A stretch of 64,000 bases of DNA from Bacteroidota bacterium (GTDB taxonomy: Bacteria; Bacteroidota; Bacteroidia; B-17B0; Aurantibacillaceae). Made by a program: the position numbers and the translations under genes. Below are positions 597-21,538 of the stretch, one piece after another; the stretch's first letter is position 1, and each line of letters starts with the position of its first letter. The notes below the pieces were generated by a model. The model was given only the letters and a program-made list of their open reading frames with translations. It was not told the DNA's origin and did not search any database. The stretch covers positions 1 to 64,000 of the forward strand of contig JAHEYF010000009.1 of assembly GCA_023251755.1 (NCBI GenBank). Reading direction: 5' to 3'.

Positions 597-1703
597 TCAT
601 TTTTTCAATAAATCAAACAGTTGCGTGTTTATGTAGAGTGTTTCTTTCCAAACCTGTCTCGATTGAAGTACTTTGATTTTTTCAAGTCCTTTCAAATATT
701 TAGATGCTGTAATACGGGAAATATCAAAGCGTTCAATCAGGTATTCAGCTTTACAGTAGGGATGTTCAAATAACAACTCAATTAATTCTTTGCTGTATGA
801 TTTGGGAGCTTTTTTCTTTACAAGCTCCTGTGTCTGAGTAAACAGTTGACTGATCTCCTTTACTTGTGAAATCGTTTCATTCGCCGTTTGCTCTATTCCT
901 TTTAAAATATACAATACCCAGTCTTCCCAATTATCTTTTGTCCGCACCTCCTGTAACAAGCGATAATAGTCCATTTTGTTATCAATAATGTAAGCACTTA
1001 AATACAATATAGGATTTTCAAGCAAACCATTCAGGATAAGGTAAAGCACATTTATAATCCTACCCGTACGCCCATTTCCATCATAAAAAGGGTGTATACT
1101 TTCAAATTGATAGTGCTGTATGGCCATTTTTATGAGTGGGGAAATCTCATCCTGTTCATTCAGGTACTTTTCGAGGTTTTTCATTAGAAGTTTTATGCTG
1201 TCTATACTATCAGGCGGCGTGTAAATTACTTTTCCGGTAGCGGCATTGCGAAGCGCTGTGCCGGGTAGTTTACGGATACCGGCTGCATTTTCTTCCAATA
1301 TTTTTTGGATTTCAATAATAGCATTGGTACTTAAAAAACCTTTCTCCTGAATAAAATGAAACCCATAGAGCATGGCTTCACGGTAACGTAATACTTCTTT
1401 TGTTGAACTATCTGCCTGCACACCTTTAGTGGATAGAGCCTGATACAATTTATCCTGTGTGGTTATTACATTCTCAATTTCAGAACTGGCGCGGGCTTCT
1501 TTCAGAATAACCGCATTCAGTAAAATGGTAGGATTTGGCAAAATCTTAGCTAAACCCTTGAGTTCGGCTAATGCTACCGATGATTTCACCAACTGACGAA
1601 GCACTTTTACCGTTTCAATTTTATCTCTTAGGGGGGACAAAAGAGGAAGGTCATTAAAAGGCTTTTCGTTGTTTATTTTTAGGGGTTGAGCTTTTTTTGT
1701 CAT
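597..1703 (-). CDS. Fic family protein (class II AMPylase) with C-terminal winged helix
   Basis: Fic enzymes transfer AMP, or another nucleotide monophosphate, from a nucleotide to a hydroxyl side chain of a target protein in the cytoplasm. The complete Fic motif HPFYDGNGRTGR begins at His204, so the catalytic His, the metal-binding Asp and the anion-binding Arg are all present. The N-terminal Fic_N region carries an inhibitory-helix motif of the form S-x-x-x-E-N (Ser73 to Asn78), which places the protein in class II: the Glu is expected to block productive ATP binding. The last ~80 residues look like a winged-helix DNA-binding domain (ISRITASKYLKGLEKI). Length (368 aa) is normal for this chromosomal architecture. 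The ATG at 1703 is 12 bases from a palindrome, which suggests autoregulation. It lies just outside the left end of the putative integrative element. Confidence 0.92.
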   Translation of the reverse strand: MTKKAQPLKINNEKPFNDLPLLSPLRDKIETVKVLRQLVKSSVALAELKGLAKILPNPTILLNAVILKEARASSEIENVITTQDKLYQALSTKGVQADSSTKEVLRYREAMLYGFHFIQEKGFLSTNAIIEIQKILEENAAGIRKLPGTALRNAATGKVIYTPPDSIDSIKLLMKNLEKYLNEQDEISPLIKMAIQHYQFESIHPFYDGNGRTGRIINVLYLILNGLLENPILYLSAYIIDNKMDYYRLLQEVRTKDNWEDWVLYILKGIEQTANETISQVKEISQLFTQTQELVKKKAPKSYSKELIELLFEHPYCKAEYLIERFDISRITASKYLKGLEKIKVLQSRQVWKETLYINTQLFDLLKK

Positions 1704-7244: not shown

Positions 7245-7673
7245 TTAATCAATTAATTTTTTTAACTCTATTTCCCCTTTAAATAAACCAATCATTTTTA
7301 GGTGAATATTTTTTTCAGACTCCTTTTCCATCACCATTTTAATAGTTGATTGGTCAGTAGTGAAATTTAAAGTATCTATATTAACTTGGGATGAAAAAAC
7401 GACTTTTTTAGAACGATCGCTGTTAAAAACAGTAATTCTATCATTACCTAATGATTCCCATATATTTAAGCCGTCTTCCAAAGCTGAAACTAATTTGTTT
7501 TTCTCAAAAGGTACAACGGCAGGATATGGATTTAAACTAAATTCCTCGACTTTCCATTGCTCTCCTTTACAAAAAGGGTTACATTCATTGCCTTTACTGC
7601 TTTCCTTTTCTTCACAGCCATAAACTGTAAAGATTGAAAAAATTAATACTGCATTTAATAATTGCTTACCCAT
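7245..7673 (-). CDS. small lipoprotein, possible orphan immunity-type gene
   Basis: 142 residues with a signal and Cys20 (VYGC). The mature protein starts with a Cys pair (CNPFCKGEQW) and then a run of short strands (KIVFSSQVNIDTLNFTTDQSTIKMV), compatible with a small lipocalin-like or beta-sandwich domain. No family was recognised. It lies in the array of small genes downstream of the Rhs gene and is followed directly by a decayed Rhs-tail-like copy. That position makes a role as a displaced immunity protein possible, but no sequence feature proves it. Confidence 0.55.
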   Translation of the reverse strand: MGKQLLNAVLIFSIFTVYGCEEKESSKGNECNPFCKGEQWKVEEFSLNPYPAVVPFEKNKLVSALEDGLNIWESLGNDRITVFNSDRSKKVVFSSQVNIDTLNFTTDQSTIKMVMEKESEKNIHLKMIGLFKGEIELKKLID

Positions 7674-7754
7674 TTTATCTTAGGCTTTAACAAAAGACCC
7701 TATGTTCAATCAAATCCCCTTCTTTTATCATATCTTTTTAAACAAAAACTACCC

Positions 7755-8204
7755 TTATTTCTTTTCATCAAGATTCAATAATAATTCTTTTCTTTTTGAC
7801 TGTGTATCATAATAATTTTTAGCCTGTAAAAAGACGAACTTATATCTTGAGTGAGGTTTAAAAAATCTATGATTTAAATTACTTACATACAAGAATATTG
7901 AATCGTTTTTAATCGTGTCTATTTTTAAAATACAGTCCGACATTAGCAAAGCGTTACTTGAGTCTATCTTGCTACTTTGATTTTCGATGGAAATAAAATC
8001 TCCAACATAACCAAGAACTCCTGTGTTATATTTAAACCAATAAATATTATCTTCATTATTAATTTTTAAAGAATCAATTAATATCCTGTGAAAGGTTTCA
8101 CTACCAAATGAAATATTTTCATCATAAGTTTTTTTCATCTTAAAATAGATGAAAATGGAAATAAGTAGAAGGATAGTAGCGGCAATTAAAATTTTATTTT
8201 TCAT
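7755..8204 (-). CDS. membrane-anchored small protein, possible orphan immunity gene
   Basis: 149 residues with one N-terminal hydrophobic helix (residues 5-22, ILIAATILLLISIFIYF) followed by a soluble, strand-rich part (LGYVGDFISIENQSSKI). No lipobox. I do not recognise the family. It starts 22 bases after the short Rhs-tail-like frame at 8227-8307, the position that an immunity gene takes after a toxin tip in Rhs and CDI loci. That is an inference from order only. Confidence 0.55.
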   Translation of the reverse strand: MKNKILIAATILLLISIFIYFKMKKTYDENISFGSETFHRILIDSLKINNEDNIYWFKYNTGVLGYVGDFISIENQSSKIDSSNALLMSDCILKIDTIKNDSIFLYVSNLNHRFFKPHSRYKFVFLQAKNYYDTQSKRKELLLNLDEKK

Positions 8205-8226: not shown

Positions 8227-8307
8227 TTAATCTCCACCTAACATTGCCTTTGTACCTTCCGACCATTTCCCCACGATTAAATCATGGGCTTGTTCTGTAA
8301 TCACCAT
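8227..8307 (-). pseudogene. remnant of a displaced Rhs-type C-terminal tip
   Basis: A short open frame encodes MVITEQAHDLIVGKWSEG followed by eight more residues ending GGD, then TAA at 8227-8229. It overlaps the last seven bases of the immunity candidate. The residues look like a genuine protein tail, not chance, and a decayed homologous copy exists at 7165-7244. Neither matches the tip of the intact Rhs gene. Orphan toxin-tip and immunity modules downstream of an intact Rhs gene are well known in other bacteria; that is my reading here. Confidence 0.45.
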
Positions 8308-8666
8308 TCGTTAGAAATAGTGCATGTATCTGGAATATACTTTTCTTTAAACCATTCGGGAATAAATATGTTTTTAGAAATTGTTCCATAATCAACTCCA
8401 TCAAATCCTTCGAATATCAAAACTCCCTTTTCTTTTATTTCAATTTTCTGTATATACATTCCAAAAAAAGTTTCCAATTCTTGTTCTATAAATTTGTCTT
8501 TATTTGTTTTATCAAGTTTCAAGAATTTATAATAATCATAATTGGAATCTTGAAGCATCTTTTCAATAATAATGTTGTCAAGACTTGGTGCTTGAATAAA
8601 ACATTCAATACCTTCTGGAAGAATGTTCAAAACATCTACTAAAAAATTATTTCCTGTCTGTGTCAT
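8301..8666 (-). CDS. candidate immunity protein for the Rhs toxin
   Basis: 121 residues, acidic, no signal peptide, so it acts in the cytoplasm. No family was recognised. Its ATG shares one base with the stop of the giant Rhs gene (TAATG), giving obligatory co-translation with the toxin tip. This arrangement, together with small size and acidity, is typical of immunity proteins in polymorphic toxin systems. The pairing is an inference from position; binding residues cannot be named. The gene is complete and its 3' end abuts a displaced-tip remnant, as in arrays where new tip-immunity cassettes push older ones downstream. Confidence 0.65.
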   Translation of the reverse strand: MTQTGNNFLVDVLNILPEGIECFIQAPSLDNIIIEKMLQDSNYDYYKFLKLDKTNKDKFIEQELETFFGMYIQKIEIKEKGVLIFEGFDGVDYGTISKNIFIPEWFKEKYIPDTCTISNEW

Positions 8667-11600
8667 TAGTCTAAAATTTTATGTCCGCTATTAGGTAATA
8701 CTTTTTTATTGGGATATAAATCAACGTTCATGTGTTTTTGCGGAGTAACTCCATCTCCTCCATATTTTATAGGAAGTGGATGTGTTTCTATTCTAAAATC
8801 TAATTTTTGATTTCCATTTTGAAAAGTCAGATTAACTTCTTGAGAAGGATTTAAAGGATTTACCTTGACCGTACCACCTTGACCTTTAAAATCATCAATC
8901 GCATTAAGTACTTTTTGTACATTGGGACTCACTCCTTTACCAGCAATAGCATCTACAGCACCAAGGCCTGCTATTGCCGATGTAACAACATGAGCCTTAT
9001 CACTCCATTGTCCTTTATATTCACCCCAAATGGCTCCTATATTATTGCTCAATGAAGGATCTTTAATCGATTGAATAAGACCAGCACGTGCTCCGTCAGA
9101 GTGTAATGAGCTTAATGTTCCTGCTGCTAAAGGGCTTAACATAATTGAACCATTCTCCATTAAATGGCTTCTCCATTGGTCATTGAACTCTTTGCCATTA
9201 ATATCCTTATCAGTATTATTAATAGCATCCGTAAAACCTTGTTCATCTTTTTTAGATACAACTATACCACCATCATGCCCATCATTCGTATTAGCTAATT
9301 CTTTTCCATCTTCACTAAAATAATGTGTTTCTGTATTTCCTAAAACATCATTAGATAAAATGGGGTTATTTCCCATACTTACATAAGGACTTTCGCTTTC
9401 ATGGAAAACAGGATCGACAGCTTTCCAACGAACAATGTCTACATCAAGTCCCCTGAAGTGAGTGTAATAATCATTATCGCCAAGCTCCCTGTTTTTCTCA
9501 CTTCCCTGATAGCCGAACATTTCAGATGAACTTCCTTCAAAGCTTCTTAATGTTTTACCTGATGCGTAGTAATCGAACGCTCCTTCTATGTTAAAGAGCA
9601 GACCTGACCTGGTGTTGTTGGTATTTGTAACGGAGTAGGTAACACGGGTGTTGCCCAAGTGGTCGTATTCGTAAAATTTATTTCCTGCACTACTAATTTC
9701 GACACTACGATTATTGGCATAAGCATACCACTTCCAGGTATTGTTAGTAATGTCAAATACACCTAATGTTTTTCCGGAATTGTCTACTAAATAATATTCC
9801 TCATTATTATTAGAGGTCAGGTTCTTTTTGTAAATCCGGTTGTCATTAGCATCGTATTCATATTCCCATTGTTTGCTATTTGAACCTGTTCCGACAGTTA
9901 CATTATATGGTAGGTTACTACGTGTGTATCGGCTCTGGCCTAATGATTTGTATGTATCTGTTCTTAAATTACCATTACCATCATAAGTATAAGTTCGTAA
10001 GGCAGTATTGGTACTGTCTATATGCAATAAGCGGTTATTTCCAGTTTGATAAGCATAGTTCCAGTTTTGTACCCAATTGGCCGGGCTTGTTATGCCGGGG
10101 TTATAATAAAGGCCACGCTGCAAATTGAGAATATTGCCAATTTTATCATACATATATTTTTCATCGCCATATTTGGTTTTGGCCGAACCGGGCTGTATAT
10201 CGCTGCTTAATACATTCATTACCGAAGCATCGGCATTGGTCAAACGGTTTAAACCATCGTAGGTATAACCGTAAACGGTTGCCCCGTCCATTAAGCCGTT
10301 TAAGGAAGATGCATTGGCCGATCTCGCCTCAAAATAACTGTGTTGCGTTCCGTTAATGTTGCCGTTATAGTTTTTGCCTGCCATTACCCTTGTTCCGTCA
10401 TTGGTGGAGCCTTGCGGGTGTTGCGCATCGTAATACAGTTTTTCGGTATACAGGTGGCTGCTCAGTTGGGTCAGCCTGTCGCGCACATCGTAAGCATAAC
10501 TTATGGTATCAATGGGCAGGGCTGTTCCGTCGTTTGCGGTGGTATAATACTTAATTTCCTGTATTAAACCCAGGGCATCGTTATAGGTATAGCCGGCTAT
10601 TTTATGCTGGTTCACCTGGCTTTCGGTGAGGCGACCCCAGCCATCGTACACATAATCGTAGCGGATGTCTGCCCCGTCAAATCCCGCGTCTACCTCTTGT
10701 GTTTTAAGGCCGTTGCGCAGGTTGTAATTTTTGTATTGTATAAGTGTAGCCAATTGGGTACTTCCGTTGTTAAACTGGGTAATTTCCCATTTGGGTAAAC
10801 CCTCATTGTTGTACGAATATACACAGATATTTTTTAATTGCCCGCTGTGATCATAACTGTAAGTCTGCGTCAGTTTACCCCGTGTATTGCTTTGCGCATT
10901 AAAGTGGGGGGCAGCTGTGTTCGCTCCTAAATACCCTACAATTTGGGAGGAATAAGTTGGTGTGGCAATGGCAGGCTGGTTAAAATCGTAATACCAGGCT
11001 TTTTCGGGAACAGTTGTTCCAAGTAGTGAGTAAGGGTTTACATTGGTTTTTACAGTAGTATTGCCCTGTGTGGTATAGGTGTACCAGTTAAAACGCCTGT
11101 CGATACTTGTAGCGTGGGTAAAAGGAGATTGGGTAGTGTAAGCCGACCATTCACCGTTTTTATACGCCAGGGGATTGGCCCCTGTTGTAACACTCACCCT
11201 GGTCTGTGTTAGCATACGCCCGTAATTATCGTACGTGTAACGGCGCAGGTAGGGGTTGTTATTATTGTCGGCACCTACAAGCGCGTTTGAATCCTGCTCC
11301 AGTACCAGTTGTCCCATACTGTTGTACATATAATTAACCTTACCGGCATCTGGTGTGTGTTTGCTGTACATCAAACCGGATATATTAAAACTGTAATTGC
11401 TTTCTTGCCCGGCAGGGTTTTTTATTTTTATCATGTTACCGTGACTATCATAATAAAAACGGGTCACTACAGCCTGGTTGTTTTTTATGTAAGCTTTGCT
11501 GGCTACTTTTTGTCCAACAGCATTGGTGTATGAAATTATCCTTTTCCCGTCTTCATCTATTAAAGCTGCTTTAAGAAATTTACTGGTGTTTAAATAGGAA

Positions 11601-14600
11601 CTATTACATACCAGTGACATATCAAGAGGTAAGCCTGGCTCTTTCAATTCGTTAATTAATTGTGTGCCTGTAATAATGTGGTAATTACTGTTAACAGTAT
11701 GGCCTGTTGTAATGTTTTCACCAAACTTGGCTGTGCGTAATACCCTTGAACGCTGATTATTTTCATATAACTGCTGGGAATAAGGATCGTTGACATTGTT
11801 GAACTGTGGCTGAAATACCGTTGGGCTGGTAGTGCTTTGTATAAAAGGTTTGTATTGTTTAATCACCCTGTCCCAGTTATCATAAATACTAAGCCCGGAA
11901 TGAACGGTAGATAAACCATACATCAGTGCTGGATCAAGGCTGTTATAATTGTTAGTTATTTGGGAGAGTATATCTAATTTACGTCCCAGGGGGTCTTCAT
12001 AAGCACGGCTGTGTTCAGCAATATTGGAAAGTGAGTTAGTGGTATCGAGCAAAATGAAGGATTCCACAAAATTCTCTGCTGCCCGGTCTTCAAAACTTAA
12101 ATTCAGGTTATTGGTAAACTGGCTGTATTTGTTAATAGTTAATAGTTGTCCGTTGCGGTAAGCCTTGGCAAGGCGGGAATAACTGTCATACTCATAATGC
12201 GTTACCATTCCGTTGGGGTCAATAATACTATCGACAGTAAAATCAGGGTTGTACAGGTAATTGGTTACCAATGAATCGGGTAAACCCTTACCTACTATAA
12301 TTTTAGTAGGTACACCTGCATTAAATATTTCGATATAACCAGTGTTGTTACAATAATGTACTGTATCGATTAAAAAATAAAGTTGTGGGCGGGTGTATTT
12401 ATATTCGGTAAACAAGTTGGTTGCATTGTGCGCCAACTCAATTAAACCATTGCTTTCGCGTTTATCAATATAGGTATTCAGCAATGTATCGTAAGGGAAC
12501 TCGGGTACAAATTTAATTGTAGTGTTGCCACTAACAATGGTACTTACAGGTTTAAAACGCAATACCTGATTGGTGGCATAACTGTGGTTGTAATTATTGT
12601 AAAGCCTTGTGTAGGCACTGTCTATACGCACCGTATCAATTTGCCGGGCGGTATAACGTAGCATTACTTTATCGACAATCTGGTTTAAAATATACCTGGC
12701 CGGGTCGGATGGAGGTAGGGGATTGCCGTCTGAAAATCCACAAGGGCACTGGTAATGGTCGTTGTTGTAATAAACATCCTCTGTACAGGGTTCGTTATAT
12801 CCTATATTTTTACCATTAATGGTTGATGAAACAAGCACACAGGGCCATTTAGGTTGTATATGCACAGTGGTATCCCCTTGTGACATCGTACAGGTAGTAT
12901 CAGGGCCGGAGAAATAAATCCGTTTAGTATAGTTCAGTAAATCTGTAAACACATAATCATAACTCCAGTTGTTATCGTACATATAATAGTCAGATACCCC
13001 AATGGGGTCTTGACAAGGCGCTTTAGAAGTCACCCGCTTTTCGTAAGGCACATCCCTTACCTTGTGTTTAGCCAAAAAGAAAAGCGTTGGGAAATTGGAG
13101 CTGGCAAATGTTCCGCCACTGCCCTGTCCAAATTTCAACAAATCATAATCGTCAAAATTAGCGAAGTCATTCAGCAGGTCGTAATAATAATAATAGTCTT
13201 CCTGTGTATAAGCATCCGGCATATCGGGCGAATAAGACTTTTTGCGGAACAATTGCCAGGAAGGCTCCCAACGAATTTTTCCGGTGTTCAATCCTAATAA
13301 ATTTTTATAGCCCTCTGATTTGGTAATTCCTTTGTAACCTGCATCCCAGTATTGGTATTCAGTAATATTGGTAAGGCTTTGGGTACTGAGCTGTACCGCT
13401 TGGTTTCCGCCAATGGTACGGGCATTGGAAGTATTGCCCGTTCCCTGTTGCGATGCAATAGCCGAAGAAGCCATGCGCATAGAACCATTGGAACCAGGTG
13501 ATACGTTGCTATTGGTTAAAGCTGTTGAGGAATTAGTGGTATAAATATCATAGTCTGTTTTAGTTTGTTTGCTTGGGGCAACAAAGTAAGAATTGAGGTA
13601 AGCCGTATCTAATGCCGAGAAAAGCGAAGGGGAAGTATTTTCGAGAAAATCATCCTGAAAAATAGCATCTTCAATGTCTAAGCGGCAATCCGTATTGTAA
13701 ATATTAACGCTGGGCACAGTTGTGTTCAATAGCGAATATTCAGAGGTATCCTCGTTGCGGTGAAATATCATCTCATCACGGTACATCCCATTGGCATAAG
13801 CTTTGCTGATGGCGTATTCGTCTGTTTCTTCGCTGAGTAAATTATTTCCGGCATCATAACTTTTACTACTTTTTAATTTACCCCACAATAAATAATCGTT
13901 CTGGGTCGAATAATGTTCATAGGCATCGTATACCCTGCTGGTCATATTGTCCATCAAAGGATGCGAAATCTTTGCATTAATAAATCCCTGTTCGGAGCTG
14001 GCATTGCTCACTTTGTAATGTGAACCAAAAGGATATACATCACCGGTAGATGAAACAATCCCTACTTTGCCTACAGGGTTGGTAAAATCATACAACCAGT
14101 CTTTTGCCAGTGTAGAACCTGTTGGAGAAGAAAGTACTTTTCTTTGAACGATTAATGAAACACGTATTACTCTTTGAACAGGCGAAGGATTGGCATAATT
14201 CGTCCCGCCAAAAGCAGTACTATAATTCAGGTTAATATCCCAATTGCTTAAACCGGCAACCCTCGTACGGCTGTCGGAAAGCGGGTAAAACTCATAAGAA
14301 GTTTCACCACCCATCTGGTCAATTATTTTAGTTAAACTGTAAAAGCCCTGAATACTGGTGTAAGCATTGTTGATAATGTTAAAGTTTTTGTATGTGTAAT
14401 TGAACTGTGTAGTGGGCAATATACTGGCATTGGTAATAGCTGTTGGATTATTTTGTGAACCATTGGTAGGTACCTGAATTATTTTTTTCAATAAAAAAAC
14501 ATTCCGCACCCAGTTTTTACTATTAGCCGGAAACACAAAAGCCCCGCTTGATATTACTGCGCGGTTATTGATTAAGGAATCCACCCGCACCTCGTATTCA

Positions 14601-17005
14601 AAATTCAACTGGTTCACCAAAACCCTGCCCGTCATGTTGCTTGAGTTGTTGTTTGCCCCGTTGGTTTTGTATTGTTTCACACTACTTAGCATAAAGGGGT
14701 TTTTGGAATAACGCACCAGTTCAATGGCAGCCAGTTTTACATTTTGATCGGCAGCGGTAGGAACATTGGGGTACATATTCGGATTTTGGGTACAGATAGT
14801 GGAAGTCTGGTCGAACCACCAGTATTTGTACCTGGCGCTATTTGGGCTTAAGCTATTGTCATCAAGTTTGCTCCACAACCAGTCTGTCATGTACCAGGGC
14901 ATACCAATGCCGAAGTTGTGGGGAATTTTATCGCAGGGCTCTATATCGCTTGTAATCATTGGAGTAAAATACTGTAGGTGGTCAAAAATGGTATTGTAGT
15001 AAGGTGATTTGGAATTACCCAATGGCATATAATCCGTATTGGTGTTGTAATCATAATCAAATTTGGTATCTGAATTTCCCGGCCCAACCTGTATATGAAA
15101 ACCCTGATACTCTTTAGGCAGGTTGGGCATTACAAACAAATTACTTGTTTTCATGTAAGCATCGTGACCATCCTGATTTGTTAAAGTTGCTTTACCCGCA
15201 GAGTTCCATTTAAGAGCCTGATTAAAGGTTGTAAATAGTGAGCGGTAACGGCGGGATTCATAATCGGCCTCGCAAACGGTATGAACATTACTGGAAGGAT
15301 TTTGCAAACCAATATCGTTTTGGGCAAACGCACTGGTGTTATCACCGCTTACTACATTTACATCAAAATTGCAAAAGGCTTTGGAGTACGAACCCTGACT
15401 ACCTGCATATTGGTTGTAGATAAGGCTTTTTACTTCGTAAATATCACCGGGAGGGCAGTCGGTACTACCTATACGTGGAGACTCAAGATAAGAATGGGTA
15501 AAGGGAATATCGGCAGAGGAACTGATCGGATTGCGGGTTAACAAATAATTCCATTCGTTTGAATTACCACAGCCTCCGGTTGGAACACTACTGGAAGCAA
15601 TTTTGTAAGGATTGTTCGGGTTAATAACTAAAGTTCCGCTGTTAAACCCTGTGTTTGCAACGGCCTGATCAGATTTGCCGTGGTTGTATCGCCACCAGTT
15701 TGCAAGGTTGTTGTTTGCTCGTTGGGTAGAAGAGTTGCCATTGTTATTGCATCCGTCCGTATTAGGCTGGTTGTAAAAATCACTGCCGAGTATGTCTGCT
15801 TCAGTTTGTGAATCAATTCCCTGTGTCCAGACTGTTTTGTAATTGTATAAAGAGTCGAGGCGATGTACCCCTGTTTCGCATATACGTAACATATCTTTGG
15901 TATCAGGAGAATTAATGGTTTTGTAGTCCAATACTAATTCTTCGAGGTAATTGACATCATCGGTTTGTGATTCGACTTTGGTTAAGAATATGTCTTTATA
16001 CACGCTAAAATCAGGTACTTTATGTGCAGGCGGAAAACCCAGGGTGTCCTGGTAAAAATTGAGTACTTCCTGTCCGATAACTGCACGAAGCCTTGACATT
16101 AAATTGGAGTATTCCTGAAAATAATTGAACTTACCAAAAGTCTGGTACTGGAATTGTATAGCAGCTGCATTGCGGTGATTAGGATTGGTAATGCTGTTGC
16201 AATAAAAACTCAAAAATTCTTCTTTGGGTAACAATACCTGGTCTAACACACGGGGTGTTCTTGTAAGGTTAACTTCTGGTGTGACATTGGTATCCACATA
16301 CACCCTTTGGTTGGAAGGGGAACGGTATCCTGTCATTCTTGTTGAGAAAAAATATTTAGTACCATCGTCGGTAATCACATCCCAACTTCCACCATTGTAA
16401 AATATGGCCTCTACATATTTATCGAATTTTGCCGGAACAAATACGTGTCCTGCTGTCTGTGGATCGGTATATTTATAAATAAAGCGTTCATTAATTACAC
16501 CCGGAATATTAATTTGTGGTTCGAACCATACTAAATCTCCTTCATGTTGGGCGTCGGCCTGATTAAAATAAAGGTAACTGTTATCATAAGTGAGCGCAGC
16601 AGCTGAGCCAACCTGCGAATCGTCGTATTTAGAAAACGATTCCGTAGTAATAGTAATAGAAGGAATATTCAGGTTCCAACCTTCCCCATAAGGAATACCG
16701 CTTGAAATCGTCGTTTCCCCACCCGAAGTAAAAGTACTCGAATAAGAGGAACTAAGCGTAAAACTTAATCCCGATGGCGTAGACACCGTTCCCAAAGTAT
16801 ACGAAGTATTCATCGTCCCTGTAAACAGGTTCACATCCGAAGTGGAAGCCCCTTTGCCCAAAGCGGAAGCCTTTACTTCTTTTACAGAAGGCTGGTTGTT
16901 TTCACGTCCGCCTATCATTTGTGCCTGCACCGAAACCTGTATCCCTAAAAGTACCGCTATCGTTTGCAGTGTTCTTTTAATTTTGTTGCTTACTATCCTA
17001 TTCAT
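8666..17005 (-). CDS. giant Rhs-repeat polymorphic toxin
   Basis: The ATG at 17005 (2779 aa) is preferred to the TTG at 17020. A signal peptide follows (residues ~12-30, ending VQAQ), so the protein is exported. The first ~1550 residues are a long N-terminal region without clear domains. YD/Rhs repeats run from about residue 1600 to 2520 (YEYDSYSRLAKAYRNGQ, YTYDGLNRLTNA, YDGNGNL). The Rhs-associated core lies at about 2515-2555 in a divergent form (FRGLDVDIVRWKAVDP). The last ~230 residues are the variable tip. Its final 70 residues contain RIETHPLPIKYGG, KHMNVDLY and GHKILD; the spaced Arg, Glu and three His suggest a nuclease-type active site, but I cannot assign a family. Rhs repeats form a shell that encloses the toxic tip. 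It is cotranscribed with the 1503-aa repeat protein upstream and coupled to the immunity candidate downstream. No T9SS sorting domain is present, so the export route from the cell is open. Confidence 0.88.
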   Translation of the reverse strand: MNRIVSNKIKRTLQTIAVLLGIQVSVQAQMIGGRENNQPSVKEVKASALGKGASTSDVNLFTGTMNTSYTLGTVSTPSGLSFTLSSSYSSTFTSGGETTISSGIPYGEGWNLNIPSITITTESFSKYDDSQVGSAAALTYDNSYLYFNQADAQHEGDLVWFEPQINIPGVINERFIYKYTDPQTAGHVFVPAKFDKYVEAIFYNGGSWDVITDDGTKYFFSTRMTGYRSPSNQRVYVDTNVTPEVNLTRTPRVLDQVLLPKEEFLSFYCNSITNPNHRNAAAIQFQYQTFGKFNYFQEYSNLMSRLRAVIGQEVLNFYQDTLGFPPAHKVPDFSVYKDIFLTKVESQTDDVNYLEELVLDYKTINSPDTKDMLRICETGVHRLDSLYNYKTVWTQGIDSQTEADILGSDFYNQPNTDGCNNNGNSSTQRANNNLANWWRYNHGKSDQAVANTGFNSGTLVINPNNPYKIASSSVPTGGCGNSNEWNYLLTRNPISSSADIPFTHSYLESPRIGSTDCPPGDIYEVKSLIYNQYAGSQGSYSKAFCNFDVNVVSGDNTSAFAQNDIGLQNPSSNVHTVCEADYESRRYRSLFTTFNQALKWNSAGKATLTNQDGHDAYMKTSNLFVMPNLPKEYQGFHIQVGPGNSDTKFDYDYNTNTDYMPLGNSKSPYYNTIFDHLQYFTPMITSDIEPCDKIPHNFGIGMPWYMTDWLWSKLDDNSLSPNSARYKYWWFDQTSTICTQNPNMYPNVPTAADQNVKLAAIELVRYSKNPFMLSSVKQYKTNGANNNSSNMTGRVLVNQLNFEYEVRVDSLINNRAVISSGAFVFPANSKNWVRNVFLLKKIIQVPTNGSQNNPTAITNASILPTTQFNYTYKNFNIINNAYTSIQGFYSLTKIIDQMGGETSYEFYPLSDSRTRVAGLSNWDINLNYSTAFGGTNYANPSPVQRVIRVSLIVQRKVLSSPTGSTLAKDWLYDFTNPVGKVGIVSSTGDVYPFGSHYKVSNASSEQGFINAKISHPLMDNMTSRVYDAYEHYSTQNDYLLWGKLKSSKSYDAGNNLLSEETDEYAISKAYANGMYRDEMIFHRNEDTSEYSLLNTTVPSVNIYNTDCRLDIEDAIFQDDFLENTSPSLFSALDTAYLNSYFVAPSKQTKTDYDIYTTNSSTALTNSNVSPGSNGSMRMASSAIASQQGTGNTSNARTIGGNQAVQLSTQSLTNITEYQYWDAGYKGITKSEGYKNLLGLNTGKIRWEPSWQLFRKKSYSPDMPDAYTQEDYYYYYDLLNDFANFDDYDLLKFGQGSGGTFASSNFPTLFFLAKHKVRDVPYEKRVTSKAPCQDPIGVSDYYMYDNNWSYDYVFTDLLNYTKRIYFSGPDTTCTMSQGDTTVHIQPKWPCVLVSSTINGKNIGYNEPCTEDVYYNNDHYQCPCGFSDGNPLPPSDPARYILNQIVDKVMLRYTARQIDTVRIDSAYTRLYNNYNHSYATNQVLRFKPVSTIVSGNTTIKFVPEFPYDTLLNTYIDKRESNGLIELAHNATNLFTEYKYTRPQLYFLIDTVHYCNNTGYIEIFNAGVPTKIIVGKGLPDSLVTNYLYNPDFTVDSIIDPNGMVTHYEYDSYSRLAKAYRNGQLLTINKYSQFTNNLNLSFEDRAAENFVESFILLDTTNSLSNIAEHSRAYEDPLGRKLDILSQITNNYNSLDPALMYGLSTVHSGLSIYDNWDRVIKQYKPFIQSTTSPTVFQPQFNNVNDPYSQQLYENNQRSRVLRTAKFGENITTGHTVNSNYHIITGTQLINELKEPGLPLDMSLVCNSSYLNTSKFLKAALIDEDGKRIISYTNAVGQKVASKAYIKNNQAVVTRFYYDSHGNMIKIKNPAGQESNYSFNISGLMYSKHTPDAGKVNYMYNSMGQLVLEQDSNALVGADNNNNPYLRRYTYDNYGRMLTQTRVSVTTGANPLAYKNGEWSAYTTQSPFTHATSIDRRFNWYTYTTQGNTTVKTNVNPYSLLGTTVPEKAWYYDFNQPAIATPTYSSQIVGYLGANTAAPHFNAQSNTRGKLTQTYSYDHSGQLKNICVYSYNNEGLPKWEITQFNNGSTQLATLIQYKNYNLRNGLKTQEVDAGFDGADIRYDYVYDGWGRLTESQVNQHKIAGYTYNDALGLIQEIKYYTTANDGTALPIDTISYAYDVRDRLTQLSSHLYTEKLYYDAQHPQGSTNDGTRVMAGKNYNGNINGTQHSYFEARSANASSLNGLMDGATVYGYTYDGLNRLTNADASVMNVLSSDIQPGSAKTKYGDEKYMYDKIGNILNLQRGLYYNPGITSPANWVQNWNYAYQTGNNRLLHIDSTNTALRTYTYDGNGNLRTDTYKSLGQSRYTRSNLPYNVTVGTGSNSKQWEYEYDANDNRIYKKNLTSNNNEEYYLVDNSGKTLGVFDITNNTWKWYAYANNRSVEISSAGNKFYEYDHLGNTRVTYSVTNTNNTRSGLLFNIEGAFDYYASGKTLRSFEGSSSEMFGYQGSEKNRELGDNDYYTHFRGLDVDIVRWKAVDPVFHESESPYVSMGNNPILSNDVLGNTETHYFSEDGKELANTNDGHDGGIVVSKKDEQGFTDAINNTDKDINGKEFNDQWRSHLMENGSIMLSPLAAGTLSSLHSDGARAGLIQSIKDPSLSNNIGAIWGEYKGQWSDKAHVVTSAIAGLGAVDAIAGKGVSPNVQKVLNAIDDFKGQGGTVKVNPLNPSQEVNLTFQNGNQKLDFRIETHPLPIKYGGDGVTPQKHMNVDLYPNKKVLPNSGHKILD

Positions 17006-17026: not shown

Positions 17027-20000
17027 TTAATTTCCTTTTGAGCCCCTGATATTACTCACTCCATTGCCCGTGCTGTATATATCTGTTTCGTAAGCGAAGT
17101 TTACATCCGACTGCAAATTGCTCCGGTAAATAATCACGTTGTTTTTATAATACCTGATCTCCTCCGGGAAGATCGCCACCTTTATGCGGTCGTTCGGCTG
17201 CACAGCACTCACTAATTGTTTGTTGTAAAAACCATCGTTGTCTGTTTCTATAATATACAATTGCCCATAAGCAATAAACACCTTGTAATTCGCCTTGTCC
17301 GCATTTGAATTATCCACCGCGCCAAAACCCATCAACAGTTGTGAAGAAGTATCTTTCACATCAAAAGCCACCCAGATGCTGTCTTCCAGTGCAAGCGTAT
17401 CAGCAGAATAAGCCGTGCCATTGTCCCAGCCCATGCTTGCACCCGATTTTGTAATGTTTGTCCCGTCCGTATTAACAGTGAGAGTACTTACAGTGGGAAG
17501 CACCCAATTGATTTTTTTTCCTTTCAATAAGTTCGCATTGTAAAAACTACACCTCACATTTTTAAACTTCCCGTTGTGTTGTCCTATACTTGCTTTCACA
17601 AACAGTTCCCCTGTTAAGCAGTTGAGCGTACTATCGAAGGCAATTCCATTCTTTTTATAATACATTTTATTTCCTTTGCGTTCCATGCGGACAATGTCGC
17701 CCACATTCACCGTTACAAAGCTCCCGCCCGAATACCGGTATAAAAAATTACCGTACAGATAAAAATTATAATCGATGTCCTGGTACTGGTTATTGCCCGA
17801 AGAATGCGTGTTTTCGTCAAGCAAACCAATCATTTTATTGTTGTTGCCCACCTGGTCCACCGTGTATTCCAGCCAGCCGTCTGTACCAGCAGACAATTTA
17901 TTGTAGCTTACCGCACTACTGGCCCAGTCGTTATAACTATTGTTAATCAGGGTGTCCCCTGTTTGTGTTAGCGAACTAAAATCTTTCCAGAATAGTTTGT
18001 AACCAATACCGACTTCACGTACAATGCTTGTTTTCTGATCGCTGATTGTTACTGTATAGGTTCCGGTAGCTTTACTGCTGATGTCCTGTGTGGTTTCGTT
18101 TCCGCTTTGCCAGTTGTAGGTATAAGGGCTGTAACCATTGCTTACACTTAAATCAATGGCTCCGGCATTGCCGTCTTCGTTGGTAGTTAAATTAGTTACA
18201 AGGGTAAACGTATTCATTAAACTGTTGTATGGGGCTGCAAAACTGCAACGTACATTTTTAAAGGTTTCGTTGTGGCCGCCAATGCTTGCTTTCACAAAAA
18301 GTTCTCCGCTTAAGCAATTGAGGGTACTGTCGAAAGCTATCCCATTTTTTTTGTAATAGATTTTAGTGCCACTGCGTTCAAGCCTTACAACATCCCCGAT
18401 GTTTACTGTTACAGAACTTCCTCCGGGGTAACGGGAAACACTGTTGCCATAATGGTAAAGGTTATAATCAATATCCTGGTATTGGTTATCGCCTGCAAAA
18501 TTGATGTTCTTGTCTAACAAACCAATCATTTTGTTGCTGTTGTTTGTTTCGTCAATGGTGTATTCCATCCAGCCATTGCCGGTTAGTTTGTTGATGCTGA
18601 CGGCATTGCTTTCCCAGCTGTTGGAGGTGGGGTTGATGAGTGTGTCTGCTGTTTGAACAAGGGAATTAAAATCTTTCCAGAAGATTTTGTAACCGATACC
18701 GATTTCTCTTGTCACACTTGTTTTCTGGTCTGTGATGGTTACGGTATAGGTTCCTGGTGCTTTACCACTGATGTCCTGGGTAGTTTCTCCACCGGGAAGC
18801 CATTGGTAGGTGTATGGACTGTAACCACTGTTTACACTTAAATCAATTGCCCCTGCATTTTCATCCGCAGAAAGGCTATAGTTGGAGTTTACATTGTTAA
18901 AGCTCATTAAGCTGGTATAGGAAGCTTCGAAGCTGCAACGTACATTTTTAAAGGCTTCGTTGTGGCCCCCTATGCTGGCTTTGATAAAAAGTTCGCCGCT
19001 TAAACAGTTCAGGGTGCTGTCGAAAGCGACTCCGTTTTTTTTGTAATAAATTTTAGTTCCGTTTCGTTCAAGCCTTACAATATCTCCGAAGGCTACTGTT
19101 ACAGAATTTCCACCGGGGTAACGGGCAATACTGTTGCCCTGTTGGTAAAGAATGTAATCAATGTCCTGGTATTGGTTATTGCCCGCAAACAGGGTGTTGT
19201 TATCCAACAGGCCAATCATTTTGTTGCTGTTGGTGGTTTGGTCGATAGTGTATTCCATCCAGCCATTACCTGTTAATTTATTGATGCTGACCGCGCTGCT
19301 ATTCCAGCCGTTATAAGTGGGGTTAAGCAGGGTGTCGCCGGTCTGAACCAGACAATTAAAATCTTTCCAGTAGACTCCGTAACCCAATCCAATCACCTGT
19401 GTTTTGGTTCCACCTATTTGGTCGCTAACGGTAAGGGTATAGGTGTGTGGGTCTTTATCGGTAATATAGGGTTCGTTGCTGTTATAAGGTTCCCAGTGAT
19501 AGGTATAAGGTGTTTGCCCTCCGTTTACGCTAAGGTCAATCCTTCCGTCGGCATCATTGGGGATGCTGTTGATGCTGCGTACATGGGCTATAAAACCAAG
19601 TGAGGTGATGGGAGGGGCTGCAAAACTGCAACGTACATTTTTAAAGGCTTCGTTGTGCCCGCCAATACTGGCCTTTACAAAAAGCTCCCCGCTTAAACAG
19701 TTGAGGGTGCTGTCGAAAGCCACTCCGTTTTTTTTGTAATAGATTTTAGTACCACTGCGTTCTACGCGAACAACATCACCTGTGTTCACAGTAACGAAAC
19801 TTCCACCTGAATAATGGTAAAGCAGATTGCCATGCTGATAAAGGTTGTAATCAATGTCCTGGTACTGGTTATTGCCCGAAAAATTAGTGTTCTGATCCAA
19901 CAGACCAATCATTTTATTGCTGATGATAATTTCGTCAATGGTATATTCTATCCAGCCATTTCCTGTAAGTTTATTGTGCGTTACGGCACTGCTGGCCCAG

Positions 20001-21538
20001 CCCTGATATGTTGTGTTGATGAGTGTATCTGCCGTTTGTGTCAGGGAATTAAAATCTTTCCAGAAGCATTTGTAACCGATACCAATGACCCTTGTTACAC
20101 TTGTTTTTTGGTCGGTAATTGTTAGGGTGTAAGTTCCGGGGGCTTTGCCGCTGATGTCCTGGGTGGTTTCGTTACCGGGTTGCCAGTTGTAGGTGTATGG
20201 AGAATAACCATTGCTTACGCTTAAATCAATTGCCCCGGCATTTTCATCGGGGCTGTTTGTATAGTTGGAGTTGATGTTGTAAAAATTCATTAAACTGCTA
20301 TAGGGGGCTGCAAAACTGCAACGTACATTTTTAAAGGCTTCGTTGTGGCCGCCAATACTGGCTTTGATAAAAAGCTCTCCGCTTAAACAGTTAAGGGTGC
20401 TGTCGAAAGCCATGCCGTTTTTTTTGTAATAGATTTTAGTGCCGCTGCGTTCAATCCTTACAATATCCCCGATGTTTACTGTTACAGAACTTCCTCCGGG
20501 GTAACGGGAAACACTGTTGCCATAATGGTAAAGGCAATAGTCAATGTCCTGGTATTGGTTATCGCCTGCAAAGTTGATGTTCCTGTCTAACAAACCAATC
20601 ATTTTATTACTGTTGTTTGTTTCGTCAATGGTGTATTCCATCCAGGCATTGCCGGTTAGTTTGTTGATGCTGACGGCATTGCTTTCCCAGCTGTTGTAGG
20701 TGGGGTTGATGAGGGTGTCTGCCGTTTGTGCAAGGGAGTTAAAATCTTTCCAGAAGATTTTGTAACCAATACCTATTTCTCTGGTTACGCTTGTTTTCTG
20801 ATCGCTGATGGTTACGGTATAAGAACCGGGAGCTTTGCCGCTGATGTCCTGTGTTGTTTCCCCATCGGGCATCCAGATGTAGGTGTATGGATTGTAACCA
20901 CTACTTACACTTAAATCAATTGCCCCTGTATTGCCATCATCGGGGTTTGTAAGGCTGGTGTTTATATTGTTAAAGTTCATTAAGCTGGTATAAGCAGCTT
21001 CAAAGCTGCAACGTACATTTTTAAAGGCTTCGTTGTGGCCCCCTATGCTGGCTTTGATAAAAAGTTCGCCGCTTAAGCAATTGGCGGTGCTGTCGAAGGC
21101 TGTGCCGTTTTTTTTGTAATAGATTTTGGTTCCGCTGCGTTCAAGCCTTACAATATCTCCGGTGGACACTGTTACAGAATTTCCACCGGGGTAACGGGCA
21201 ATGGTGTTGCCCTGTTGGTATAGAATGTAATCAATGTCCTGGTATTGGTTGTTGCCTGCAAAGTTGATGTTTTTGTCCAATAAACCAATCATTTTATTGC
21301 TGTAGGGGCTTGGGTCAATGGTGTATTCCATCCAACCATTGCCGCTTAGTTTGTTGATGCTGACTGCGCTACCGGCCCAACCATTACCGGTGGGGTTAAG
21401 CAGGGTGTCGCCACTTTGTACTAAGCAGTTGAAGTCTTTCCAGTAAACGGGGTAAGGGCTTTGGGCAGTGCCGGTTTGCGCTATTATTGCCAGTAGCAGG
21501 AACGCAAGTTGGGTGTAAATTTTTTGTAATCTTTTCAT
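17027..21538 (-). CDS. giant secreted protein with six SPRY-like/SprB-type tandem repeats
   Basis: 1503 residues with a signal peptide (residues 1-25, ending TGTAQ). The body has six units of ~230 residues, starting near residues 34, 263, 493, 723, 953 and 1183. Each starts with a ~150-residue lectin- or SPRY-like domain (WKDFNxL.. to ..KIYYKKNG, FDSTLNCLSGELF, KNVRCSF). Units 1-5 are followed by a ~65-residue SprB-type repeat (GAIDLSVSxGYSPYTYxW.. ETTQDISGKAPGTYT). A seventh, divergent domain of the same kind (INWVLPTVSTLTV.. NNVIIYRSN) ends the protein at residues ~1341-1503. SprB repeats are known from gliding and adhesion proteins. No T9SS tail is seen. The stop lies 21 bases before the Rhs ATG, so the two form an operon. 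I infer a surface adhesin or delivery partner for the Rhs toxin. Confidence 0.8.
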   Translation of the reverse strand: MKRLQKIYTQLAFLLLAIIAQTGTAQSPYPVYWKDFNCLVQSGDTLLNPTGNGWAGSAVSINKLSGNGWMEYTIDPSPYSNKMIGLLDKNINFAGNNQYQDIDYILYQQGNTIARYPGGNSVTVSTGDIVRLERSGTKIYYKKNGTAFDSTANCLSGELFIKASIGGHNEAFKNVRCSFEAAYTSLMNFNNINTSLTNPDDGNTGAIDLSVSSGYNPYTYIWMPDGETTQDISGKAPGSYTVTISDQKTSVTREIGIGYKIFWKDFNSLAQTADTLINPTYNSWESNAVSINKLTGNAWMEYTIDETNNSNKMIGLLDRNINFAGDNQYQDIDYCLYHYGNSVSRYPGGSSVTVNIGDIVRIERSGTKIYYKKNGMAFDSTLNCLSGELFIKASIGGHNEAFKNVRCSFAAPYSSLMNFYNINSNYTNSPDENAGAIDLSVSNGYSPYTYNWQPGNETTQDISGKAPGTYTLTITDQKTSVTRVIGIGYKCFWKDFNSLTQTADTLINTTYQGWASSAVTHNKLTGNGWIEYTIDEIIISNKMIGLLDQNTNFSGNNQYQDIDYNLYQHGNLLYHYSGGSFVTVNTGDVVRVERSGTKIYYKKNGVAFDSTLNCLSGELFVKASIGGHNEAFKNVRCSFAAPPITSLGFIAHVRSINSIPNDADGRIDLSVNGGQTPYTYHWEPYNSNEPYITDKDPHTYTLTVSDQIGGTKTQVIGLGYGVYWKDFNCLVQTGDTLLNPTYNGWNSSAVSINKLTGNGWMEYTIDQTTNSNKMIGLLDNNTLFAGNNQYQDIDYILYQQGNSIARYPGGNSVTVAFGDIVRLERNGTKIYYKKNGVAFDSTLNCLSGELFIKASIGGHNEAFKNVRCSFEASYTSLMSFNNVNSNYSLSADENAGAIDLSVNSGYSPYTYQWLPGGETTQDISGKAPGTYTVTITDQKTSVTREIGIGYKIFWKDFNSLVQTADTLINPTSNSWESNAVSINKLTGNGWMEYTIDETNNSNKMIGLLDKNINFAGDNQYQDIDYNLYHYGNSVSRYPGGSSVTVNIGDVVRLERSGTKIYYKKNGIAFDSTLNCLSGELFVKASIGGHNETFKNVRCSFAAPYNSLMNTFTLVTNLTTNEDGNAGAIDLSVSNGYSPYTYNWQSGNETTQDISSKATGTYTVTISDQKTSIVREVGIGYKLFWKDFSSLTQTGDTLINNSYNDWASSAVSYNKLSAGTDGWLEYTVDQVGNNNKMIGLLDENTHSSGNNQYQDIDYNFYLYGNFLYRYSGGSFVTVNVGDIVRMERKGNKMYYKKNGIAFDSTLNCLTGELFVKASIGQHNGKFKNVRCSFYNANLLKGKKINWVLPTVSTLTVNTDGTNITKSGASMGWDNGTAYSADTLALEDSIWVAFDVKDTSSQLLMGFGAVDNSNADKANYKVFIAYGQLYIIETDNDGFYNKQLVSAVQPNDRIKVAIFPEEIRYYKNNVIIYRSNLQSDVNFAYETDIYSTGNGVSNIRGSKGN
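17500..21445 (-). repeat. six direct repeats of about 690 bp inside the giant gene
   Basis: The landmark AATCTTTCCAG recurs (once as AGTCTTTCCAG) near 21435, 20745, 20055, 19365, 18675 and 17985, a constant step of about 690 bases. Long blocks are nearly identical at DNA level, for example around AACGTACATTTTTAAAGG (18250, 18940, 19632, 20322, 21012). Such identity implies recent duplication or gene conversion and predicts copy-number variation between strains. Confidence 0.9.

What the first reader, a model, noticed from the sequence alone, without database searches (positions are those of the whole stretch)
8301..17005. Rhs toxin with unassigned C-terminal tip, coupled to an unknown immunity candidate
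A 2779-aa Rhs protein ends in a ~230-residue tip after a divergent core motif. The last 70 residues have spaced Arg, Glu and three His (RIETHP, KHMNV, GHKILD) but match no toxin family I know. The next gene overlaps the stop by one base and encodes a 121-aa acidic protein. This may be a new toxin/immunity pair.
Basis: partly seen in the sequence, partly recalled or inferred. Interest (0 to 1): 0.75.

Follow-up and report, generated by a model that had tools for sequence, protein, structure and literature searches.

The report
New Rhs toxin tip with immunity
A giant secreted bacterial protein ends in an exchangeable ~80-residue toxin of a family missing from the public databases checked, encoded next to the gene for its own antidote protein; it is a new example of a well-known kind of bacterial weapon.

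Summary
A 2779-aa YD/Rhs protein (8666-17005, minus strand) ends in a tip that matches nothing in Pfam, NCBIfam, PHROGs, the PDB, plasmids or phages. Its stop codon overlaps by one base (TAATG) the start of a 121-aa acidic protein (8301-8666, minus). The ~225-residue tip is a linker of about 140 residues plus an ~85-residue toxin module (2695-2779). Relatives turn the guess into a well-supported pair. Toxin and small protein occur together, in the same order, in four other Bacteroidota genomes: once on a different Rhs chassis (chassis 26-31% identical, toxin 58%), once as a displaced orphan cassette (66%), and twice as a truncated toxin stub next to an intact small gene. GC falls from 41% (chassis) to 31% (toxin) to 27% (small gene). 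AlphaFold gives a confident compact fold (pLDDT 89): a helix, then a four-strand meander, resembling the BECR RNase fold. Foldseek found no significant match, so RNase activity is inferred. The Rhs protein carries a Sec signal, lies beside an SprB-repeat gene, and the genome has SprA, which points to Sec/T9SS export. It is a new toxin/immunity family in a known class. Nothing was tested for toxicity or binding.

The parts
8666..17005 (-). Rhs/YD-repeat polymorphic toxin, 2779 aa, with an N-terminal Sec signal peptide (MNRIVSNKIKRTLQTIAVLLGIQVSVQAQ)
   Evidence: ORF; RHS_repeat PF05593 E=1.4e-11; YD_repeat TIGR01643 E=1.1e-5; signal peptide read from the sequence by eye
9336..9520 (-). divergent Rhs core end (MFGYQGSEKNRELG...NDVLG), aa 2496-2556
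   Evidence: aligns with the TIGR03696-positive core of L031
8924..9335 (-). linker / pre-toxin region, aa ~2557-2694, not clearly shared with the relatives
   Evidence: only weak, gapped alignment to the L031 pre-toxin region; GC 38%
8669..8923 (-). toxin module, aa 2695-2779; invariant R2738, E2740, H2742, H2758, N2760, D2762, H2775, K2776 among the intact homologues
   Evidence: alignment A4; AlphaFold2 pLDDT 89.4; pI about 9; GC 31%
8301..8666 (-). cognate immunity protein, 121 aa, acidic, no signal peptide; start overlaps the toxin stop by 1 nt
   Evidence: homologues always 3' of the toxin in four other genomes; alignment A5, 45-55% identity; GC 27%
17027..21538 (-). 1503-aa secreted protein with SprB repeats immediately upstream, a possible T9SS-linked partner
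   Evidence: SprB PF13573 E=3.6e-20; signal peptide by eye

Best explanation
This is a polymorphic Rhs toxin with its immunity gene. The large YD-repeat protein is exported through Sec and probably the type IX secretion system, and its repeat shell carries a C-terminal ~85-residue toxin to other bacteria. The toxin is most likely a small, metal-independent RNase with a BECR-like alpha + four-strand meander fold. Its active site would be R2738/E2740/H2742 on one strand, H2758/N2760/D2762 on the next, and H2775. It would act in the cytoplasm of the target cell. The acidic 121-aa protein, whose start overlaps the toxin stop, stays in the producer's cytoplasm and blocks the basic toxin. Shown here: genes, modularity, conserved pairing, horizontal cassette behaviour, confident toxin fold. 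Inferred: toxicity (about 0.9), neutralisation by the partner (about 0.9), action on nucleic acid (about 0.65), RNase of BECR type (about 0.5), T9SS export (about 0.5).
For: Relatives of the toxin: L006 (Chitinophagaceae UBA2793, 66% identity), L015/L031 (G1343, 58%), and stubs in L007 (Paenimyroides aquimaris) and L035 (G1839). Each is followed directly by a homologue of the 121-aa protein. L031 carries the same toxin on a different, 1178-aa Rhs chassis (26-31% identical). L006 is a displaced cassette downstream of another Rhs tip. L007 lies behind an Rhs protein with a different tip and its own small partner gene. GC step 41% to 31% to 27%. Toxin basic (pI 9.0-9.8), partner acidic (pI 4.1-4.4). 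AlphaFold model: helix 2-14, strands 18-21, 28-36, 39-49, 61-70 and a short final strand, pLDDT 89, which matches the published BECR description of an N-terminal helical segment and a four-strand meander, sometimes with a short fifth strand (PMC3482391). SprA present in the genome. SprB-repeat neighbour as reported for Bacteroidetes TANFOR polymorphic toxins (PMC7073777).
Against: No significant Foldseek match to any solved structure or viral model; the best hits are not BECR RNases. No sequence match to any BECR family in Pfam or NCBIfam. The S/T often found in the fourth strand of BECR RNases is absent there. The alignment behind the model has only four rows, one of them a stub, and two of the five models scored below 60. 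The Rhs protein has no recognised T9SS sorting domain at its C-terminus. No interaction was predicted or measured.
Confidence: 0.6

Rival explanations
1. The pair is a real toxin/immunity pair, but the toxin is not an RNase: it is a metal-dependent DNase, or an enzyme of another kind with a new fold.
For: Foldseek finds no known fold, no RNase family matches, and conserved H/N/H residues also occur in HNH nucleases.
Against: The model shows no beta-beta-alpha metal finger: H2758 and N2760 lie in a long strand. The domain is about 85 residues, small for PD-(D/E)xK or ADP-ribosyltransferase folds (general knowledge).
Confidence: 0.35
2. The tip is a degenerate or non-toxic Rhs end and the 121-aa gene is an unrelated neighbour.
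For: No toxicity data; the Rhs core end is divergent; two of the four relatives carry only toxin stubs.
Against: The two genes are paired in five genomes on different chassis, with conserved polar residues in the three intact toxins. Where the toxin is ruined, the small gene stays open: L007 against L035 shows 10 codon differences in 122, five of them synonymous, and no stops.
Confidence: 0.06
3. The protein is delivered by a type VI secretion system and not by Sec/T9SS.
For: Many Rhs effectors are T6SS cargo (PMC8636562, PMC10539506). The Bacteroidetes-type TssC search gave no verdict because its control was silent.
Against: An N-terminal Sec signal peptide (sequence), no VipB in the genome while the control rang, SprA present, and an SprB neighbour.
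Confidence: 0.1

Closest known systems
Rhs-CT/RhsI and CdiA-CT/CdiI modules (PMC3150448)
   Same: Large repeat chassis, exchangeable C-terminal toxin, adjacent immunity gene, orphan modules, exchange between systems.
   Different: The toxin and immunity sequences match no described family in the libraries searched here; the chassis has a Sec signal and no sign of T6SS.
TANFOR polymorphic toxins of Bacteroidetes, e.g. BaCT/BaCTic (PMC7073777)
   Same: Bacteroidetes, large Sec-signal protein, C-terminal toxin with downstream immunity gene, SprB-repeat gene immediately upstream, T9SS in the genome.
   Different: YD/Rhs repeats and no TANFOR match; no sign of a PD-(D/E)xK toxin.
BECR-fold RNase toxins (barnase, colicin D/E5, Ntox50 such as YxiD; PMC3482391, PMC12700104)
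   Same: Predicted N-terminal helix plus four-strand meander; basic toxin with acidic immunity protein; His-rich putative active site.
   Different: No significant sequence or fold match; smaller than YxiD (85 against 107 residues); no S/T in strand 4.

Membership tests
Rhs polymorphic toxin / Rhs-CT-RhsI module | YD/RHS repeats in a large chassis | tested here: met
   PF05593 E=1.4e-11, TIGR01643 E=1.1e-5
Rhs polymorphic toxin / Rhs-CT-RhsI module | Rhs-associated core domain before a variable tip | tested here: inconclusive
   No TIGR03696 hit at E<=1, but aligned over the core to L031, which hits at 1.9e-11; the second DPxG of the classical motif reads DVLG
Rhs polymorphic toxin / Rhs-CT-RhsI module | The same tip found on a different chassis | tested here: met
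   L031: chassis 26-31%, toxin 58% identical
Rhs polymorphic toxin / Rhs-CT-RhsI module | Conserved immunity gene directly 3' of the toxin, also in orphan modules | tested here: met
   Five of five loci
Rhs polymorphic toxin / Rhs-CT-RhsI module | Tip is toxic and specifically neutralised by the partner | not testable with these tools
   Needs experiment; no complex prediction was available
BECR-fold RNase | N-terminal helix followed by a four-strand meander | tested here: met
   AlphaFold2 secondary structure, pLDDT 89.4, four-row alignment; order of elements only, coordinates and strand pairing not inspected
BECR-fold RNase | Significant fold or sequence match to a known BECR RNase | tested here: not met
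   Foldseek PDB and BFVD: none at E<=0.001; no PDB sequence hits; no Pfam or NCBIfam hits
BECR-fold RNase | RNase activity | not testable with these tools
   Needs biochemistry
TANFOR polymorphic toxin | N-terminal TANFOR domain | tested here: not met
   NCBIfam and Pfam scans of the whole protein report no such domain
T6SS cargo | T6SS in the genome | tested here: inconclusive
   No VipB, control rang in E. coli; TssC PF17541 silent also in the controls; genome 93% complete
T9SS substrate | T9SS in the genome | tested here: met
   SprA TIGR04189 at 2525 bits
T9SS substrate | C-terminal T9SS sorting domain on the protein itself | tested here: not met
   No Por_Secre_tail hit on P0001; the C-terminus is the toxin

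The most novel reading that the evidence does not exclude
The ~85-residue toxin is a new catalytic fold, not a BECR RNase, with an R-x-E-x-H / H-x-N-x-D / GHK active site, delivered by Sec plus T9SS from a YD-repeat shell, which would make T9SS a route for interbacterial Rhs toxins.
Probability: 0.12. Interest if true: 0.7.

Novelty: new member of a known kind. Interest (0 to 1): 0.4.

Why it matters
It adds a toxin and an immunity family absent from the curated libraries, with clear candidate catalytic residues and a very small domain, so target and mechanism can be tested directly. The context (Sec signal, SprB neighbour, SprA present) bears on the open question, raised in PMC7073777, of whether T9SS exports polymorphic toxins. 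The stub-plus-intact-antidote loci look like natural examples of retained orphan immunity.

Tried and rejected
Searches of plasmids, phages and four viral-contig scans with toxin or partner gave nothing. The weak hits of the phylum scan (E 0.001-0.05) were not taken as relatives: L014, L018 and L020 were read and are ordinary unrelated genes; the others were not read, and most lie in long frames of 620-670 aa, which looks like one unrelated conserved protein. The two weak hits of the immunity profile (L011, L012) were left as chance without further reading. The idea that the other tip in L007 (YRLDPAHP...PHINWW) belongs to the same superfamily was tested by profile comparison and gave no support. 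Foldseek of toxin (PDB, BFVD) and partner (PDB) gave no classification. L036 is the same locus as L007 and was not counted twice. The GH49, cGAS and sigma-factor hits to partner homologues are above E=0.03 and single-member: chance.

Full report
Observation. The window holds on the minus strand a 2779-aa ORF (8666-17005) and, overlapping its stop by one base (TAATG), a 121-aa ORF (8301-8666). The large protein has RHS/YD repeats (PF05593 E=1.4e-11, TIGR01643 E=1.1e-5) and an N-terminal sequence that reads as a Sec signal peptide. Neither the tip nor the small protein has a significant match in Pfam, NCBIfam or the sequences of the PDB; the tip has no significant PHROGs match either. The quoted motifs are present.

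Relatives. A scan of one genome for each of about 85,000 species with the 82-aa tip found two relatives. That scan uses exact peptide patterns from a single sequence, so more distant relatives would be missed. In L006 (Chitinophagaceae UBA2793) a stand-alone toxin cassette, 66% identical, lies downstream of an Rhs end with a different tip and is followed, again with TAATG overlap, by a 122-aa homologue of the small protein (45%). In L007 (Paenimyroides aquimaris) a toxin stub (the last ~20-27 residues) precedes a 122-aa homologue (55%), behind an Rhs protein with an unrelated tip and its own small partner gene. A profile search over 395 genomes of the phylum found a fourth locus, L015/L031 (G1343): an intact 1178-aa Rhs protein whose last ~81 residues are 58% identical to the toxin, followed by a homologue of the small protein (45%). 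A search of 290 genomes of that genus gave a fifth, L035 (G1839): a 42-residue frame holding the toxin end next to an intact 122-aa homologue, among repeats of ~40 nt and an ORF that resembles a REP-associated transposase. So the pair keeps order and near-overlap in five genomes. The family is rare: one further hit in 395 phylum genomes.

Modularity. The chassis of L031 and the window align at 26-31% identity, while the toxin module aligns at 58%. The window core end is too divergent for TIGR03696, but aligns with the L031 core, which hits it. The module therefore starts near residue 2695; residues ~2557-2694 are linker. GC falls from 41% (chassis) through 38% (linker) and 31% (toxin) to 27% (small gene), against 38.9% for the window. 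These are the marks of mobile CT/immunity modules described for CDI and Rhs systems (PMC3150448).

Selection. In L007 and L035 the toxin has lost the strand with R, E and the first His, yet the small gene is open over its full length; the two copies differ at 10 of 122 codons, five of them synonymous. This suits retained orphan immunity, though the numbers are too small for a test of selection.

Structure. From the four-row alignment AlphaFold2 gives a compact toxin model with mean pLDDT 89.4 (two of five models were poor): helix 2-14, strands 18-21, 28-36, 39-49, 61-70 and a short final helix/strand. Invariant polar residues alternate on strand 39-49 (R44, E46, H48 of the model = R2738, E2740, H2742) and strand 61-70 (H64, N66, D68 = H2758, N2760, D2762), with H81/K82 (H2775/K2776) in the last segment. 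Alternation would put each trio on one face, as expected of an active site on a sheet; the coordinates themselves could not be inspected. The order of elements equals the published description of the BECR core (PMC3482391). However, Foldseek found no match at E<=0.001 in the PDB or viral models and its best hits are not BECR RNases, and the S/T often present in strand 4 is absent. The RNase assignment is therefore an inference at about 0.5. The partner model (pLDDT 82.5) also matches no solved fold. Toxins are basic (pI 9.0-9.8) and partners acidic (pI 4.1-4.4); the partner has no evident signal peptide, so it should act in the cytoplasm, which suits a toxin with a cytoplasmic target.

Export. 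The gene directly upstream encodes a 1503-aa secreted protein with SprB repeats (E=3.6e-20), the genome has SprA of the T9SS (2525 bits), and VipB of the T6SS was not found while the control rang; the Bacteroidetes TssC search was uninformative. Jana and colleagues reported the same SprB-neighbour pattern for TANFOR toxins and proposed T9SS export (PMC7073777). The present protein has no TANFOR match and no T9SS sorting domain of its own, so the export route stays a proposal.

Verdict. This is a new toxin and immunity family in a well-known class of system: ordinary in kind, new in its parts, and readily testable.

Noticed in passing
G000 contig C149 (L032 1-15045; L033 7978-17141): A second Rhs locus in the same genome: a long Rhs plus further Rhs ends of 436 and 900 aa that share core sequence (GMPGRTFNSQEAR(H/Y)GFNGQEKDDEIA in the first two) but have different tips and are followed by different small ORFs, i.e. 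probable displaced tips.
   Followed up: partly
window 7245-8204 (-): Two small co-directional ORFs (142-aa putative lipoprotein, 149-aa single-pass protein) downstream of the immunity gene, very AT-rich (25-30% GC), no Pfam match; possibly further acquired immunity genes.
   Followed up: partly
L035 278-317, 1475-1514, 2301-2340, 2412-2451: Four copies of a ~40-nt repeat (with inverted copies) around the orphan immunity gene together with an ORF resembling a REP-associated tyrosine transposase, suggesting how the cassette was cut and moved.
   Followed up: partly
L007 3183-4489: Another unassigned Rhs tip (YRLDPAHPNAKPGSGEEYPHINWWDYTKGKRGKGG) followed by a 143-aa partner; the tip has 72% identical matches in three Leptospira noguchii plasmid records, two annotated as RHS core proteins, i.e. 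across phyla.
   Followed up: partly
window 597-1703 (-): Fic protein with SoFic-like C-terminal domain (Fic_N, Fic, SoFic-like_C in Pfam).
   Followed up: no
window 24032-26497 (+): 821-aa fusion of a class I/II aminotransferase with a GNAT-like (Acetyltransf_6) domain.
   Followed up: no
window 17027-21538 (-): 1503-aa protein built of about six similar repeats of roughly 200-240 residues (each with a KDFN...GLLD...IYYKKNG...ASIGGHNE domain, most followed by an SprB repeat).
   Followed up: partly
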